Both the position numbers and the translations under genes were made by a program. A stretch of 64,000 nucleotides of DNA from Karstenula rhodostoma CBS 690.94 (Eukaryota; Ascomycota; Dothideomycetes; Pleosporales; Didymosphaeriaceae). The stretch is from contig MU001508.1 in the NCBI GenBank assembly GCA_010093485.1, positions 386,051 through 450,050 of the forward strand. Reading direction: 5' to 3'. This document shows, piece after piece, positions 16,422-23,140 of the stretch (its first letter is position 1; the number at the start of each line of letters is the position of its first letter). Under the pieces are notes generated by a model. That model was given only the letters and a program-made list of their open reading frames with translations. It was not told where the DNA came from and did not search any database.

Positions 16422-16509
16422 AGCGGCGAACCAGAATTGAACTGGTGACCTTCAGGAACCACGAGCTTGGTGACTGCAGCCCGCTGCTCTACCACTGAGC
16501 TACCGCCGC
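16422..16509 (-). tRNA. tRNA-Cys (GCA) with a 16-nt intron
   Basis: The 88-nt minus-strand gene folds as a tRNA. The acceptor stem is GCGGCGG paired with TCGCCGC (last pair G-U). The D-arm is GCTC/GAGC with loop AGTGGTA. The anticodon loop starts CTGCAG with anticodon GCA. The variable loop is AGGTC, and the T-arm is ACCAG/CTGGT with loop TTCAATT. U at the discriminator position is the known Cys identity base. The loop is interrupted after position 37 by about 16 nt, where eukaryotic nuclear tRNA introns sit. Four of five anticodon-stem pairs form; G27 faces A43. The internal A and B boxes are present and a T6 terminator follows. Confidence 0.85.
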
Positions 16510-17095
16510 GGTATTGATTTGATGATAAAACCCCTACGTTTTGAATATATATCTGCAATTATAACCCGGGCTGGAGAGGGCGGAAGAGGAAGATGGAGGG
16601 GCAAGCTAGTGGCGGGTGGGGCGGGGCGGGGGGGGGGGGGGGGGGTGGGGCGACAAGCGCTGTGTAACCGAGGGTTGATAGGCCTGTTTTCGATGGGGTT
16701 GGGGATTACCGGATGGGGAATGTTGGGGTTGGTGGACTACCCTGGAGCGGTGGTGCGGTGTTTTGGGTGGTGGTGATGTTTTGTTGCGGTGATAGATGTT
16801 TACTATTCCTTGGAGATCTGGAGGGATTGGTGTTGGATACTACGTTCGGTCCGTCTGTGTGCGCGAGAGACGCTGGCGATGGTGAACTGGGATAGTGACG
16901 GTTTTCAGGCTTGGCAAGGGTAGGGCTGTGTGTACTTTGTTGATTTTAGCTGATTAGATCGTGGTCGTAGGCCATCGCTGGGTGCTCGGTGTGGATATGG
17001 TATCATTCACGCCGGCCATCTCAACGTCCACCACCACAAGCTGCTTCATCTCCATCAACGTCGTCATCTCCCCCTTCACGCCCATTTCGCTAACA
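16510..17095. other. intergenic region with poly(G) tract
   Basis: The spacer between the tRNA and the ZIP 3' end is strongly G-rich on the plus strand and carries a run of 18 G. No gene is seen. Confidence 0.45.
16628..16645. repeat. poly(G) tract, 18 bp
   Basis: Eighteen consecutive G residues are embedded in a G-rich stretch (about 16610-16655). Such a tract can form a G-quadruplex and is prone to length error in sequencing. Confidence 0.9.
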
Positions 17096-18739
17096 CTAAG
17101 CCCATTTTCCTAGCAAACTCATCAGCGCCATGCCCGCAACCAAGAAAAACATGGCCACCCCCGTCCTCAGCGCGCCCGCGCCCACAAGCCCGCCCTGCAG
17201 CCAGTCCCGCGCCAGCATCTCGTGGATGCCGACCCACGCGAGGATCCCCGCGCTCAGCGCATCCAGCGTGCCGATGGCGATCAGCGTCGACGCGTCGCTC
17301 CCGTTGAACCGGTCGAGCACGCCGATCCCGATGGCCATCCCGATGGGCGTGACCAGCATGAAGCCGCCCGCCATGAGGCACCTGGACAGCATCGACGCGG
17401 CTTGCGGCGGGAGGCCCGCGATGCAGGTGCCGAGCGCGAGGCCTTCGAACATCTGGTGGAAGAGGATGACGATGAAAAGGGTTATGAAGAAGGCGTCGCT
17501 GGAGACGACGAGGGTGATGCCGATGACTGTCCAAGATCAGTTTTGCGCACTGGAAATCGAGAAGGCGAGACTTACGCAGTGAGTGGAAGATGATGCCTGC
17601 CTCCAGTACCAGCACGTTGATCTTTGCGTCCGCGTCGCTGTGCAGATCTACGTGCTCGCTGTGTCCGTGGGCCGGGATGACGGCGCTGGTAGCTGGGCTG
17701 GTGGTCTTTGCGTCGTCAGTGGGAGGAGCAGCGGCTTCGGCGTCTTGTCCGCTTCGTTTGCTCTGGCGCCAGAGGAGAAACCGCTTGCTGATGTAGTCGA
17801 TCAGGAAAGACACGAACAGTCCCGCCATGAAGATGGCCGCTGTAGTGCCTTCGTAAGGCAATTCGCCCAAGCATTCGTTGCCGAACATAAGGTAGGCATG
17901 CGTGAATAGCTGCTTCGGATTAGCATGCGACGTTTCTCTGGGTCGAGTGGATGGAACCGTACATGTACAAAGGCAGTCGAAATGATGACACCGGTACCGA
18001 ACTGCTTCGCCGCCACGAAGACGAGACTGCGCTGGGACATGCGCGTAAATCGCGTCATGATAACTGGCAAAAAGGCTCCGAGACCGCTGGTCACGAGGAT
18101 GACAAAGAGCAGTCCAATCCGGAGCGGCTTGTTGTATTCACGGTCTATTCGTTGGCAGGTAGGCGCTGCTTCTGATCCACCACCACCGGTGCAGTGTCTA
18201 AAGATATCAGTATCCATGATAGTAATTAACAGTTGAGGATAGTACTCACGGGACACCTGCATGCTCGTGACAGTGCACTCCTTCATTTGCACCGCCCACC
18301 TCGGATCCGCCTTCATGGGCATGCTCTTCCTCGCTTTCTGTGCTCTCTGCACCTTCGACGAGGATCTGGACATCATCGCCTGTTGAGTTGACGCAGTATC
18401 TGTGCTGATTAGGAGTGATCTGAGTATCTGCCAGGTCGACGACTCACGTGCTGCTGCCGTGCGCATGGCAGCCAGTATACTGTGCCTCGAACTCCTCGGT
18501 CGCTGTAGGCCCTACAACTTCGTACTCTGCTGTGCCAGCGACGCAATATCTGTTGTTGTGAGATTGGCGATCTCTTCGTCATGGCATGGAACTCACTGCA
18601 CGGTAGAATGGGCATGGCACTCCGAGACAGCAGTAATCGAAGGCGCTGCCGCGGAAGCTGTCGTCGGAGCCGGAGTCGTAGTCTGCGCAAAACCACTCGC
18701 AGAAAGTAGGACTAGCGCGGCTGAAGCCGCAGTCTTCAT
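17096..18739 (-). CDS. zrfC: ZIP zinc transporter, ZrfC/Zrt1-like
   Basis: Six exons on the minus strand (18597-18739, 18448-18549, 18250-18399, 17963-18197, 17576-17909, 17096-17526) give 464 residues. A signal peptide (MKTAASAALVLLSASGFAQ) leads to an extracellular domain with three copies of a Cys-His-x-His-x4-[Tyr/His]-Cys motif at residues 41-50, 75-84 and 125-134. Eight membrane segments follow. Between TM3 and TM4 lies a loop with HGHSEHVDLH, and the ZIP signature is intact: HSLLIGITLVVS (His319) and FHQMFEGLALG (His345, Glu349). The family imports zinc across the plasma membrane. The gene is divergent from the secreted Asp f 2-like gene over a 1.1 kb promoter with ZafA- and PacC-type hexamers, the arrangement of zrfC-aspf2, where the pair is induced by zinc lack at neutral or alkaline pH. 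Orthology rests on domain plus synteny, not on a search. Confidence 0.92.
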
Positions 18740-19823
18740 GTTGGGGCGCATTATGTAGGTGTGCAACGCTCGAGTCGTTCCCGTAACCGCGTGTCGATTG
18801 TGGCAGCAACGAACAAGTTACAAGCAAGCAGCACCCTGTCCCGAAACCCACGAATATAAGTTTCCGCTACTGAGTACACTAATGGAGAAATGCCGTTTCC
18901 GCCCACGCCAAGTTGCCTACGCCAAGCTCAGCGCATACCTTGATGGCCTTCCAAGAACTTGGCGGAAGGAGCTTCATTCGGCCGGATTGCTGTGTTCTCT
19001 CTTGGGCATTCCGAATTTTGGCGATGCCTTCCCACACGGGAAGTAGCGTCCGCCATTGGGCTTGGGGCTGTGCTTGGCGGTGAATGGGCGCAGGTGTTAC
19101 TTCAGTGTGGACCGAGTGAGATGCGCTTGGGTGGATACTCGGATGAGAATTCAGATGTTCTAGTAGAGCTAGCTGTGTGTCATCAATCAATTGTGGGAAA
19201 AGAAAAGAGAGATGGGTGGGATGGTAATGTGGAACGGAGTTAGTGGGCAAGTTCAAGGTGGGTGGAAGAGACATTCAAAGCATGGAAAGCAAAGATTCGA
19301 ATACCAGATAACTACATAAGTATATTCAAGTATATGGTATGTTCTAGGGAAACACCTGGTAGTATGCAATAGCGCTGTATCTGTCCTAGGTTGACTACTG
19401 CCCACACTGTCAGTCGATTAGCAGGGTTTGCGGGGTCCATCTGCTAGACAGGAGAACCACCTCCGTTCGCTCAGGACATCAAGGTACTTTTGTACCGCCA
19501 CCTTCGACATCGACCAAGTCTTTCTTGAAGTTTCGGTCTTGGCTGATCATGATGAGCTTAGCAAATGCCACACGCGGCTCCATGGCTTCCCAACAATCGG
19601 CTTGGGTGGCAGGGAAAGGCCATCATGGTGGATCAAAGTAGGACTTGGGGAGACTTCCGGTGGGCTATCAGTCTCGGCGCGAAAGCTACGTGACCTGGCA
19701 TCCCAACAGGCAGAGTAGCGTAGATCCACGTGGAAAAGTATAAAAGGTGTTGTACCTGCAGCAAGCATCAATCAGCACCGGATTCATTCGCCATCTCAGA
19801 CCTCCTGACAATCGTCATTCACA
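18740..19823. promoter_or_regulatory. shared divergent promoter of the zinc-uptake pair
   Basis: This 1084-bp spacer separates the two start codons. It contains three copies of CAAGGT, the core reported for the zinc-response activator ZafA: 18937-18942 (minus), 19254-19259 (plus) and 19480-19485 (plus). It also contains six copies of GCCARG, the PacC core: 18907-18912 and 18921-18926 (plus), and 18958-18963, 19073-19078, 19538-19543 and 19694-19699 (minus). By chance about 0.5 and 1 would be expected. Four of the PacC-type sites and one CAAGGT fall within 175 bp on the transporter side. The sites are seen; their use is inferred from known regulation of zrfC-aspf2. Confidence 0.65.
19739..19745 (+). 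promoter_or_regulatory. TATA box of the Asp f 2-like gene
   Basis: TATAAAA lies 78 bp upstream of the start codon, a usual distance for a strongly inducible fungal gene. Confidence 0.6.
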
Positions 19824-20858
19824 ATGGATGTTCTTCGATCCGCTGTCCTCCTCTTCGCTGCCTCGGCTGTTGCCTCCCCGGCTCTGCTTCCCCGTCAAGC
19901 CAGCACTGTGACTGTTACCCAGGTCGCATCTGCACCAGCTCCTACGGCTACTGCATGGAACTCTGGGGCCGTTGACGAATTTACCATCCACTCTTCTTGC
20001 AACAACACGGAAGCTGCTCAAATCAAGAAGGGCCTTGGAGAGACGCTGATCCTTGTGCGACACGCGCGTGATCACATCCTGCGATTTGGCAACTCGAGCG
20101 AGATCTATCAAAAGTACTTTGGCAACGCCAGCACGGGCGAGCCAATTGGATGGTACACCAAGATTGCAGACGGCAACAAAGCAGATCTGTTGTTTAGATG
20201 CGACGACCCCGATTCGAACTGTGGCCAAGAAGGTGATTAGATACCAGACTGCAAATGGGACTGATTGTTGACGTGCTCCAGGCTGGGCTGGCCACTGGCG
20301 CGGTGAAAACGCTACTTCAGAAACAGTCATCTGCCCCCTATCGTATGAAGTCCGCAAGCCTCTCGAGGCGCTTTGCGGCTTTGGCTGGGATGTCGCGAAT
20401 GGCAAGACCAACTTTTACTGGGCGTCCGATCTGCTACACCGTCTCCTCCACGTCCCCACGGTCGGAGAAGGTATCGTCGAGCACTATGCCGAAGACTACG
20501 CCGAGGTCATCGAGCTTGCGCAGACAGAGTCCAGCCTATCTGTGAGGGACAGCGATACGCTTCAATTGTTCGCGCTTGAAGCTTACGCTCACGATATTTC
20601 GATTCCGGGCGAGGGCTGTGCTGGAAAGTGGACTGCTACAAGCTCCGATGTTGCAAGTGCAACCAGTGCGGCTGCCAGCCTAAGCAGTGCGGAAGCTGCG
20701 AGCGCGACCGACACACCTTCGCCCACTCTAAGCGAAGAACCTTCGGCAACTTCGGCTGCGCCAGCGGTATGTGATTGAAGTGCTTTTGAAGGTTGATCAT
20801 TGCTAACAGATAGTAGGAGTGCCACACTCATGCTGACGGCGTGGTGCACTGCTCTTAA
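19824..20858 (+). CDS. aspf2: Asp f 2/Pra1-like secreted zinc-binding protein (zincophore)
   Basis: Three exons (19824-20232, 20282-20766, 20817-20858) give 311 residues. The protein has a signal peptide (MDVLRSAVLLFAASAVAS), an LPRQ Kex2-like site, and the family core starting at FTIHSSCNNTEA. It contains HILRFGNSSEIYQKYFGNA, then HRLLH at 189-193 followed by a conserved HYAED segment (204-208), a zincin-like pattern shared by Pra1 and Asp f 2. A Ser/Ala/Thr-rich linker leads to the C-terminus ECHTHADGVVHCS, which is encoded alone by the 42-nt third exon. Known members are secreted under zinc starvation, bind zinc and hand it to a partner ZIP (Pra1 with Zrt1). The neighbouring divergent ZIP carries the same Cys/His motif. 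Asp f 2 is also an allergen family. Function here is inferred from family and context. Confidence 0.92.
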
Positions 20859-21594: not shown

Positions 21595-23140
21595 ATGAAG
21601 CTAATTACGGCATTCGCGCTCAGCGCGCCCGTCAGTGCCATGCTACGCTTCTCCTGTTCGACGCTGGTGACCGATCGAATTGATCCGTGAGTGTCCATCA
21701 CAATGAGCAGAGCTTGATTCAAATTATGGCCCTGTGGCAAAATACATACGTAAAGCGTCTGAATGTTGAACAGAGGACTGACAGTTGCAGTCTTGTGAAT
21801 CCAGGAGAGGCTCCGAGCCCTCATCTACACCAATTGGTAGGAGGCAACGCGCTCAACACGACCATGGATCCGAGCAATGAGCTTCCTGATATTTCGACAT
21901 GCACATCGTGTCAGTTCACTGAGGACTTTAGGTAGGTGGTGACTCCAAGCTCGAATGTCACCAAACGGTGGGTTAATGGCCGTAGCAACTATTGGACCGC
22001 CGTATTGTTCTTCAGAGCTCGCAACGGCACATTCAAGCGCGTGCCGACCTTTGCGAATGAATATCTGGAGCCAGCGAACGGGGGGATTACCGTATACTAT
22101 ATCGCTCCGTATGACGGAAAGACGAAAGTCAAGGCTTTCCAAAAGGTCAGTTGACGCAGGCCCGAAACATGCATTCCTCGAACCCTGTAGATGATTGCTA
22201 CAGTTCCAGGGCGAAAGTCCGGGTACAGTGTGTTACCACAGTAAACAATATGGAGGCCGATTGTACACAATTTTTGTCCTGGTACTGTATTGAACAGGAG
22301 CAGAGTGCTGAACAGATGCAGGGTTTCCGAATGATTGTTGGTGATCCCATTAGACGCACGGATATGCAGGACCATGACGCTCGAGGACTCAGCTTCCGCT
22401 GCTGGGGCGAAAACTTCACCAACAGCGTTGGGGCTCCAGGAACAAACCAAGACACGCGATACTTTCCGAAACAGCCGTGCAAGGGTGGGATTCGCGCAAA
22501 CCACTTCTTTCCGACGTCAGTCCAGACCAAGCTCTTGAATTCTCCAGCTAACAGTACGTCACAGCTGTTGGGACGGAAAGAACCTGGATTCACCGGTACG
22601 CGTGTGAAATGGATGTCTCAGACATAGATCCCAGGTACTTATGCCTGCTCTCTGGATTACGCTGACTTGTTGTTCGCGCTTCTAGGATCACAAGTCCCAT
22701 GTCGCATATCCGAAAAACGGCTCCTTTGAGTCCGGTGGCCCATGTCCAGAGTCTCATCCGATCAAGATCCCACAGATTCTATACGAAGTCGCATGGGATA
22801 CCCGGCAGTTCAATGACCCGAACGAGTGGCCAGAAGATGGCTCTCAGCCCTTTGTCTTTTCAACCGGTGACCATACTGGTTATGGCACACACGGTGATTG
22901 TGCGAATTACCTTCCGTGACATCTTCAGCTCATGTGTGCTGATACATGATAGACGTCTTCGGCTGGAAGGGTGATGCGCTGCAGCGGGCGATGGATCAAA
23001 ACTGTCAAGTCAATTGCCCTACCCTCAAAATGCAGTCAACGCAATCGGCGAATAAATGCACGGTGGAGAAAAAGGTCGAAGAGAACATTGACGGGTGGCT
23101 GACTGAGCTGCCAGGCGGAATGCCGATCACGTATCTTTGA
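21595..23140 (+). CDS. secreted DUF1996 domain protein
   Basis: Seven exons (21595-21686, 21791-21931, 21986-22145, 22322-22515, 22564-22594, 22686-22893, 22953-23140) give 337 residues with closing phases; one exon is only 31 nt. A short signal peptide (MKLITAFALSAPVSA) is followed by the typical entry MLRFSCSTLVTDRIDPLVNPG. The DUF1996 landmarks then follow in order: HLHQLVGGNALN, TCTSCQFTEDFSNYWTAVLF, GITVYYIAPYDGKTKV, GFRMIVGDP, CWDGKNLDSPDHKSHVAYP, WPEDGSQPFVFSTGDHTGYGTHGD, VFGWKGDALQRAMD and IDGWLTELPGGMP. The family is common in fungal secretomes, often next to WSC domains, and its activity is unknown. No WSC domain follows here. The third intron (176 bp) is longer than the others. Confidence 0.9.

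What the first reader, a model, noticed from the sequence alone, without database searches (positions are those of the whole stretch)
17096..20858. Divergent ZIP transporter / zincophore locus
A full-length ZIP transporter and an Asp f 2/Pra1-like secreted protein are transcribed apart from one 1.1 kb spacer. The zrfC-aspf2 and PRA1-ZRT1 pairs have this same arrangement and take up zinc by secreting a carrier that docks on the transporter. Both members here are intact, so this genome probably has the two-part zinc scavenging system.
Basis: partly seen in the sequence, partly recalled or inferred. Interest (0 to 1): 0.8.

Follow-up and report, generated by a model that had tools for sequence, protein, structure and literature searches.

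The report
Fungal zinc scavenger and transporter pair
This stretch of a mould's genome carries two back-to-back genes, one for a secreted zinc-catching protein and one for the membrane transporter thought to receive its zinc; the pair is a known kind, but the short zinc-binding units in these proteins look as if they were built and traded between genes as separate exons.

Summary
A 6-exon ZIP gene (18751-17096, minus, 468 aa) and a 3-exon Pra1/Asp f 2 gene (19824-20858, plus, 311 aa) diverge from a 1,072-bp spacer, in what is very probably Karstenula rhodostoma CBS 690.94. Both are intact. The Pra1 protein matches solved Candida albicans Pra1 (E 5.5e-80), keeps its zinc-binding histidine triad and lacks the protease Glu. 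The ZIP is the only one of eight ZIP loci found here with CHxH ectodomain modules. Many relatives have both genes on one contig, and the spacer is enriched for ZafA- and PacC-type sites. So: an ordinary zincophore/receptor locus; induction, docking and uptake are inferred. Not met in the papers searched: each transporter module is split by a phase-2 intron in codon 8 of 10; a surface-type protein on another contig (3x CEPHGDHWHC) has an intron at the same codon and phase; and in a Pleosporales clade the zincophore's CHTHxxGxxHC tail is replaced by that protein's module, apparently with its intron. This suggests exon duplication and tail capture, but introns in other species are inferred from mispredicted proteins, as no other fungal DNA was available.

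The parts
17096..18751 (-). ZIP transporter of the ZrfC/Zrt1(Zrt101) kind, 6 exons (18751-18597, 18549-18448, 18399-18250, 18197-17963, 17909-17576, 17526-17096), 468 aa
   Evidence: spliced model; Zip PF02535 E 6.4e-42; 85% identical to Paraphaeosphaeria homologues
18198..18751 (-). Exons 1-3 and their introns: hydrophobic N-terminus (by eye) and the extracellular-type modules CHAHSTVQYC (aa 45), CHAHGSSTYC (aa 79), CHEHAGVPHC (aa 129; its last residues lie in exon 4)
   Evidence: module positions; exon boundaries
18550..18596 (-). Intron 1, 47 nt, phase 2, splits codon 8 of module 1 (CA|A)
18400..18447 (-). Intron 2, 48 nt, phase 2, splits codon 8 of module 2 (AC|A)
18198..18249 (-). Intron 3, 52 nt, phase 2, splits codon 8 of module 3 (CC|A)
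18752..19823 (.). Shared divergent spacer, 1,072 bp
18937..18942 (-). CAAGGT core (ZafA ZR-like, 14 of 15 to DYYVYCARGGTVYYY)
19254..19259 (+). CAAGGT core (10 of 15, weak context)
19480..19485 (+). CAAGGT core (14 of 15)
18907..19699 (.). Six PacC-type GCCARG sites at 18907(+), 18921(+), 18958(-), 19073(-), 19538(-), 19694(-)
   Evidence: 6 seen, 1.47 expected, 0.3% of 2000 dinucleotide shuffles as many
19824..20858 (+). Pra1/Asp f 2 zincophore, 3 exons (19824-20232, 20282-20766, 20817-20858), 311 aa
   Evidence: PF13933 E 1.5e-103; Pra1 structure 9n47 E 5.5e-80
20817..20858 (+). 42-bp terminal exon encoding the tail ECHTHADGVVHCS (phase-0 intron just before it)
   Evidence: kept in the deposited model P0121

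Best explanation
The locus is a conserved fungal zincophore/receptor pair. Under zinc limitation, probably strongest at neutral to alkaline pH, a ZafA/Zap1-type activator and PacC acting on the shared 1.07-kb promoter switch on both genes. The Pra1 protein is secreted, binds zinc with its His189/His193/His204 triad and with its CHTHADGVVHC tail, and brings the metal back to the cell. The ZIP protein, whose N-terminus outside the cell carries three Cys/His modules of similar chemistry, takes the zinc over and imports it. Shown here: gene structures, family membership, conserved metal ligands, occurrence of the pair in relatives, motif enrichment. Inferred from characterised relatives: induction, secretion, binding, docking, transport. 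In addition, the three ectodomain modules most likely arose by duplication of symmetrical (phase 2-2) exons.
For: 45% identity (126 of 282 aligned positions) to C. albicans Pra1; triad 3 of 3, HAXXH present, 8 of 8 cysteines, Arg in place of the catalytic Glu. ZIP profile nearly full length, HQMFEG in the transport core, and the only one of the 8 ZIP loci found with a CHxH module. One HRXXH gene found in the genome. Both genes on same-length contigs in 26 other species. 3 CAAGGT against 0.71 expected (3.75% of shuffles as many) and 6 GCCARG against 1.47 expected (0.3%). Shared module intron position: chance about 7.5e-6 under a simple uniform model set up after seeing it.
Against: No expression, binding or uptake data. 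Most residues that hold the C. albicans hexamer together are not kept: N-terminal brace 1 of 5 (W33), inter-dimer 2 of 7 (T50, Q54), one of four glycosylated Asn lost; the hexamer cannot be assumed. Only two of the three CAAGGT cores have good context. A control on the upstream regions of the seven other ZIP loci was inconclusive: two had a CARGGT site of 12 or 14 of 15, and several gene starts were not placed correctly. The NCBIfam zip subfamily model scores below its cut-off (207.1 against 231.15 bits, E 3.6e-61). No named ZrfC/Zrt1 sequence was compared directly.
Confidence: 0.88

Rival explanations
1. The secreted-type protein is an active M35/deuterolysin-type metalloprotease that merely lies beside a zinc transporter.
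For: Weak Aspzincin_M35 match (E 2e-4, 22.3 bits, below the cut-off of 30); Pra1 shares the deuterolysin fold (PMC12663325, Results read).
Against: HRLLH instead of HExxH, with His204 as third ligand, as in Pra1; HR..H in 120 of the 120 listed homologues; PF13933 matches far better (E 1.5e-103).
Confidence: 0.03
2. The ZIP is an ordinary ZrfA/ZrfB-type importer and the adjacency is accidental.
For: All share the Zip domain; no tree with named ZrfA, ZrfB and ZrfC references was made.
Against: CHxH modules in 119 of the 120 listed relatives and in none of the seven other ZIP loci found here; both genes on same-length contigs in 26 other species.
Confidence: 0.03
3. The introns at codon 8 of the modules are a coincidence or reflect preferred intron insertion at a splice-prone site in the conserved module end, not exon duplication or capture.
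For: The bases right after each intron are alike (A or G, then TAT, TAC or CAC, then TGC or TGT), so a preferred insertion site is conceivable. Two of the three modules of the surface-type protein have no intron, nor does the window's own Pra1 tail inside its motif.
Against: Of the seven modules examined in this genome (three ZIP, three surface-type, one Pra1 tail) four contain an intron, and all four share codon and phase. Exon 2 (102 nt) equals one module period; 34-36 residues is the commonest module spacing, 123 of 314 gaps in the 120 listed relatives. The replaced Pra1 tail carries the module's neighbouring residues as well.
Confidence: 0.25

Closest known systems
Aspergillus fumigatus zrfC-aspf2
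   Same: Divergent pair on one bidirectional promoter (884 bp there, 1,072 bp here) with three ZR motifs of core CAAGGT; ZIP with repeated N-terminal zinc-binding motifs; zincophore with the Zn site PNCHTHEGGQLHCT at its end (PMC6070888, PMC9785309, PMC9780748: passages).
   Different: ZrfC is reported with four putative N-terminal motifs; here there are three. Co-regulation shown there, not here.
Candida albicans PRA1-ZRT1 (Zrt101)
   Same: 45% identical zincophore with the same triad and tail; Zrt1's zinc site KKCHFHAGVEHC (PMC8773511, passages) resembles module 3, CHEHAGVPHC.
   Different: Hexamer contact residues mostly not kept.
Unnamed fungal surface-type family labelled PF28209 in the source listing (here C11:1254739-1255395)
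   Same: 10-residue C..H....[HY]C module; a phase-2 intron in codon 8 of the first module.
   Different: No ZIP or HRXXH match; 201 aa, three CEPHGDHWHC modules, hydrophobic C-terminus; lies on another contig.

Membership tests
Pra1/Asp f 2 zincophore (PF13933) | HRXXH domain over the full profile | tested here: met
   E 1.5e-103, profile 4-245 of 245
Pra1/Asp f 2 zincophore (PF13933) | Histidine triad HRxxH + H (His178, 182, 193 of C. albicans Pra1) | tested here: met
   H189, H193, H204
Pra1/Asp f 2 zincophore (PF13933) | C-terminal CHTHxxGxxHC (most ascomycetes) | tested here: met
   CHTHADGVVHC at 300-310
Pra1/Asp f 2 zincophore (PF13933) | Hexameric ring (known for C. albicans only) | tested here: inconclusive
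   1 of 5 brace and 2 of 7 inter-dimer residues identical
Pra1/Asp f 2 zincophore (PF13933) | Secreted, binds zinc, needed for growth without zinc | not testable with these tools
   only a hydrophobic N-terminus, residues 3-21, was seen
ZrfC/Zrt101 zincophore-linked ZIP | Full ZIP domain | tested here: met
   PF02535 E 6.4e-42, 3-322 of 323
ZrfC/Zrt101 zincophore-linked ZIP | Long N-terminus with Cys/His zinc-binding motifs | tested here: met
   three CHxH modules, absent from the 7 other ZIP loci found
ZrfC/Zrt101 zincophore-linked ZIP | Divergent arrangement with a PRA1 gene | tested here: met
ZrfC/Zrt101 zincophore-linked ZIP | Groups with named ZrfC/Zrt101 in a tree | not tested
   no named reference among the listed hits
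ZrfC/Zrt101 zincophore-linked ZIP | Induction by zinc limitation at alkaline pH through ZafA and PacC | not testable with these tools
   motif enrichment only
M35 deuterolysin protease | Catalytic HExxH + D | tested here: not met
   HRLLH + H

The most novel reading that the evidence does not exclude
A 10-residue Cys/His zinc-binding mini-module, marked by a phase-2 intron in its eighth codon, has been duplicated and shuffled as exons among the proteins of the fungal zinc-scavenging route: it builds the array on the transporter's ectodomain, recurs in a surface-type protein family encoded elsewhere, and in one large Pleosporales clade (and Aaosphaeria) was captured by the secreted zincophore in place of its original tail, while the transporter's first module has a Trp-containing form in the same lineages. 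Carrier, surface protein and receptor would then hand zinc along through interchangeable modules.
Probability: 0.4. Interest if true: 0.6.

Novelty: new member of a known kind. Interest (0 to 1): 0.4.

Why it matters
The pair itself extends a well-described system to one more genus. The exon pattern makes an open question approachable: how zinc passes from zincophore to transporter. If tail and ectodomain modules are related or co-evolving units, natural tail swaps in Pleosporales are ready-made experiments on which parts must match. It also warns that the zincophore tail can sit on a tiny terminal exon (42 bp here) that gene finders miss, so some reported tail losses may be annotation errors.

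Tried and rejected
Active protease and accidental-neighbour readings were rejected (see rivals). Hexamer by homology: not supported by contact residues, left open.

Co-evolution of the replaced tail and the Trp module: in a hand-picked set of 28 species (26 same-contig pairs, Parastagonospora, the window), 20 carry both traits legibly and agree in 20 of 20 (12 with both, 8 with neither); 8 rows lacked a trait and were dropped. But each trait changes only twice on the tree, only one independent pair lies on well-supported branches, and a single clade is not rejected (AU p 0.303). Suggestive only. Against it: in the wider ZIP list the Alternaria conjuncta protein P0038 has LYC, not LWC (its Pra1 tail was not seen); P0078, P0098 and P0108, which fall away from that clade, have Trp in their first detected module, and eight more proteins have Trp in a later module.

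The ZafA-site control on other ZIP genes was inconclusive. The surface-type gene has one CAAGGT upstream in poor context (7 of 15) and two GCCARG in 1 kb, so its zinc control is not supported. Of three DHWHC-coding matches in the genome, two lie in that gene; the third (L011) was only looked at as raw sequence. A protein search found no second such gene (next hits E 0.08 and 0.23). In-frame intron read-through inside ZIP modules of the 120 listed relatives: none by the pattern tried. The held Pfam copy has no PF28209. Papers holding HGDHWHC or DHWHCPSG: none in the library. Searches joining zincophore or ZrfC/Zrt101 with exon, intron, Pleosporales or fusion terms listed 10 of 4,819, 12 of 186 and 10 of 10 papers; by title and abstract start none concerned this. 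A search for gzbA with zinc and GPI found none, and one for A. fumigatus locus tags gave only a listing that I did not use.
Full report
WHAT IS THERE. The window belongs to a 44.3-Mb fungal assembly in 29 contigs and lies at C17:386051-450050. Contig C17 is 1,506,074 bases long, the same as the contig of P0121, 'zincin [Karstenula rhodostoma CBS 690.94]'. P0121 equals the window's protein in 293 of 311 aligned columns, with a 17-column gap in a low-complexity linker. The genome is therefore very probably K. rhodostoma (Pleosporales, Massarineae, Didymosphaeriaceae). Reading the DNA and splicing at GT..AG gives a six-exon ZIP gene on the minus strand (18751-17096, 468 aa) and a three-exon gene on the plus strand (19824-20858, 311 aa), 1,072 bp apart. 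The finding's coordinates are the two stop codons.

IDENTITY. The plus-strand protein matches HRXXH PF13933 over 4-245 of 245 (E 1.5e-103) and M35 only below its cut-off. The only sequence match among solved structures at E up to 1 is C. albicans Pra1 (two entries, 9n47 and 9n4d, E 5.5e-80). Mapped on the residues named in PMC12663325 (outline with abstract, Results and Discussion read), the zinc triad is H189/H193/H204, Arg190 stands at the place of the protease Glu, all eight cysteines are kept, and three of four glycosylated Asn are Asn. Of the hexamer contacts, 1 of 5 brace and 2 of 7 inter-dimer residues are identical. It is the only HRXXH gene found in the genome: two matches, its two main exons. 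The ZIP protein covers the Zip profile from residue 161; before it lie CHAHSTVQYC, CHAHGSSTYC and CHEHAGVPHC. At least eight ZIP loci were found (ten matches). In the seven others (match plus 1.5 kb on each side, six frames) the CHxH start of a module appears only as three stray hits without a closing cysteine in reach.

NEIGHBOURS IN OTHER SPECIES. Of 1016 ZIP and 445 Pra1 homologues the best 120 each were listed. By eye I matched 26 species in which both proteins lie on a contig of the same length; five have neighbouring locus tags (Paraphaeosphaeria minitans, Plenodomus lindquistii, Neocucurbitaria sp., Aureobasidium pullulans, Oculimacula yallundae). A published survey found PRA1 in 87 of 102 species and synteny with ZRT1 in 61 of those (PMC5751234, passages; also PMC3386192, passages). 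The arrangement is known.

PROMOTER. The spacer holds 3 CAAGGT (0.71 expected, 3.75% of 2000 dinucleotide shuffles as many) and 6 GCCARG (1.47 expected, 0.3%). Against the footprinted consensus DYYVYCARGGTVYYY (PMC6070888, passages), two of the three reach 14 of 15; two further CAGGGT cores reach 10 and 12. In the whole 64 kb eight sites reach 14 or more. In A. fumigatus the corresponding promoter is 884 bp with three such motifs, and divergent genes less than 1200 bp apart are said to be co-regulated by ZafA (same passages). That GCCARG is the PacC site is recalled, not taken from a call.

MECHANISM. By homology: the genes are induced together when zinc is short, the carrier is secreted and binds zinc by triad and tail, and the transporter's Cys/His modules receive it. 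Peptide work is cited as showing that zinc binds more stably to Zrt1's KKCHFHAGVEHC region than to Pra1 (PMC9780748, passages), which would favour hand-over. None of this was tested in this species.

MODULES AND INTRONS. Introns 1-3 of the ZIP gene are all phase 2 and all split codon 8 of a module (Q52, T86, P136). If three introns fell uniformly in the module region, one per module at one shared position has a chance of about 7.5e-6, a figure worked out after the pattern was seen. Exons 2 and 3 are symmetrical (2-2); exon 2 is 102 nt, one 34-residue period. Among the 120 listed relatives, module number runs from 0 to 9, most often 3 (51), 5 (25) and 4 (22). The last module ends in HC in 119 of 120; exactly 2, 4, 6 or 8 other modules and one HC module make up 79 of 120 arrays (51 + 25 + 2 + 1), against 29 with 1, 3, 5 or 7 (9 + 17 + 2 + 1), as pairwise duplication would favour. 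Some of these are incomplete gene models.

THE ZINCOPHORE TAIL. In the window the tail ECHTHADGVVHCS is a 42-bp last exon after a phase-0 intron. Reading on into that intron gives VCD-stop; the P. sporulosa model P0123 ends APAVRD at the same place, so missing tails can be missed exons. Of 120 listed Pra1 proteins, 76 have a CHTH-type tail, 25 PHxDHWH, 2 part, 17 neither; counting tails cut at DHW and with a slightly different CHTH pattern, 121 rows including the window gave 75 CHTH, 30 DHW and 16 unread. The replacement reads about C.PH.DHWHCPPGVPEPT.PPA. This is the repeat of a 201-aa protein of this genome on contig C11, with three CEPHGDHWHCPSGVxEPTTPP units. Its listed homologues (120 of 316) include Claviceps, Fusarium, Aspergillus and Pseudogymnoascus, most labelled PF28209. 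The same PF28209 label is precomputed for three Pra1 proteins, P0152, P0155 and P0166; the held Pfam copy lacks that model, so I could not repeat it. The C11 gene's first unit is split by a phase-2 intron in codon 8 (TG|G); its other two units are not. Four Pra1 models stop exactly at DHW, and one Pra1 (P0151) and three surface-type proteins (P0287, P0300, P0302) read through from DHW into R-HC. Arg before HC in 4 of 4 read-throughs is what an intron ending in AG before a G predicts. So the tail most likely moved with its intron; this is inference from protein models, not from DNA. No listed protein holds both tails and no listed ZIP holds DHWHC. On a quick tree of the Pra1 core, DHW tails need two changes, a 29-row clade (SH-aLRT 99) and Aaosphaeria. 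On a 28-species joint tree one clade for all is not rejected (p 0.303).

VERDICT. The finding is right and ordinary in kind. The exon-level modularity is the part worth following; it is moderately supported and cheap to test with genomes not held here.

Noticed in passing
L012 (G000:C11:1253437-1256451), gene on minus strand from locus position 1959: 201-aa surface-type protein with three CEPHGDHWHC modules, a phase-2 intron in the first and a hydrophobic C-terminus (signal-like N-terminus by eye); its module resembles the replaced tail of many Pleosporales zincophores.
   Followed up: partly
window about 21600-23140, plus strand: A DUF1996 (PF09362, E 1.8e-11 for one piece) gene lies just downstream of the zincophore gene in the same direction; its exon model was not resolved.
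   Followed up: no
window 24425 and 24499: Two CAAGGT sites of 14 of 15 match to the ZafA consensus lie 74 bp apart on the minus strand with no clear gene beside them.
   Followed up: partly
window 16422-16509, minus strand: A tRNA gene for which ARAGORN gives no full anticodon, possibly intron-containing; a run of 18 G lies nearby at 16628-16645.
   Followed up: no
window about 20626-20680: The deposited protein P0121 drops 17 residues of the Ser/Ala-rich linker, apparently as an extra intron, while keeping the 42-bp tail exon (position worked out from the alignment).
   Followed up: partly
window 17096-18751: No row named Karstenula appears among the best 120 ZIP homologues, so the deposited annotation of the ZIP gene may be missing or of a very different length.
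   Followed up: no
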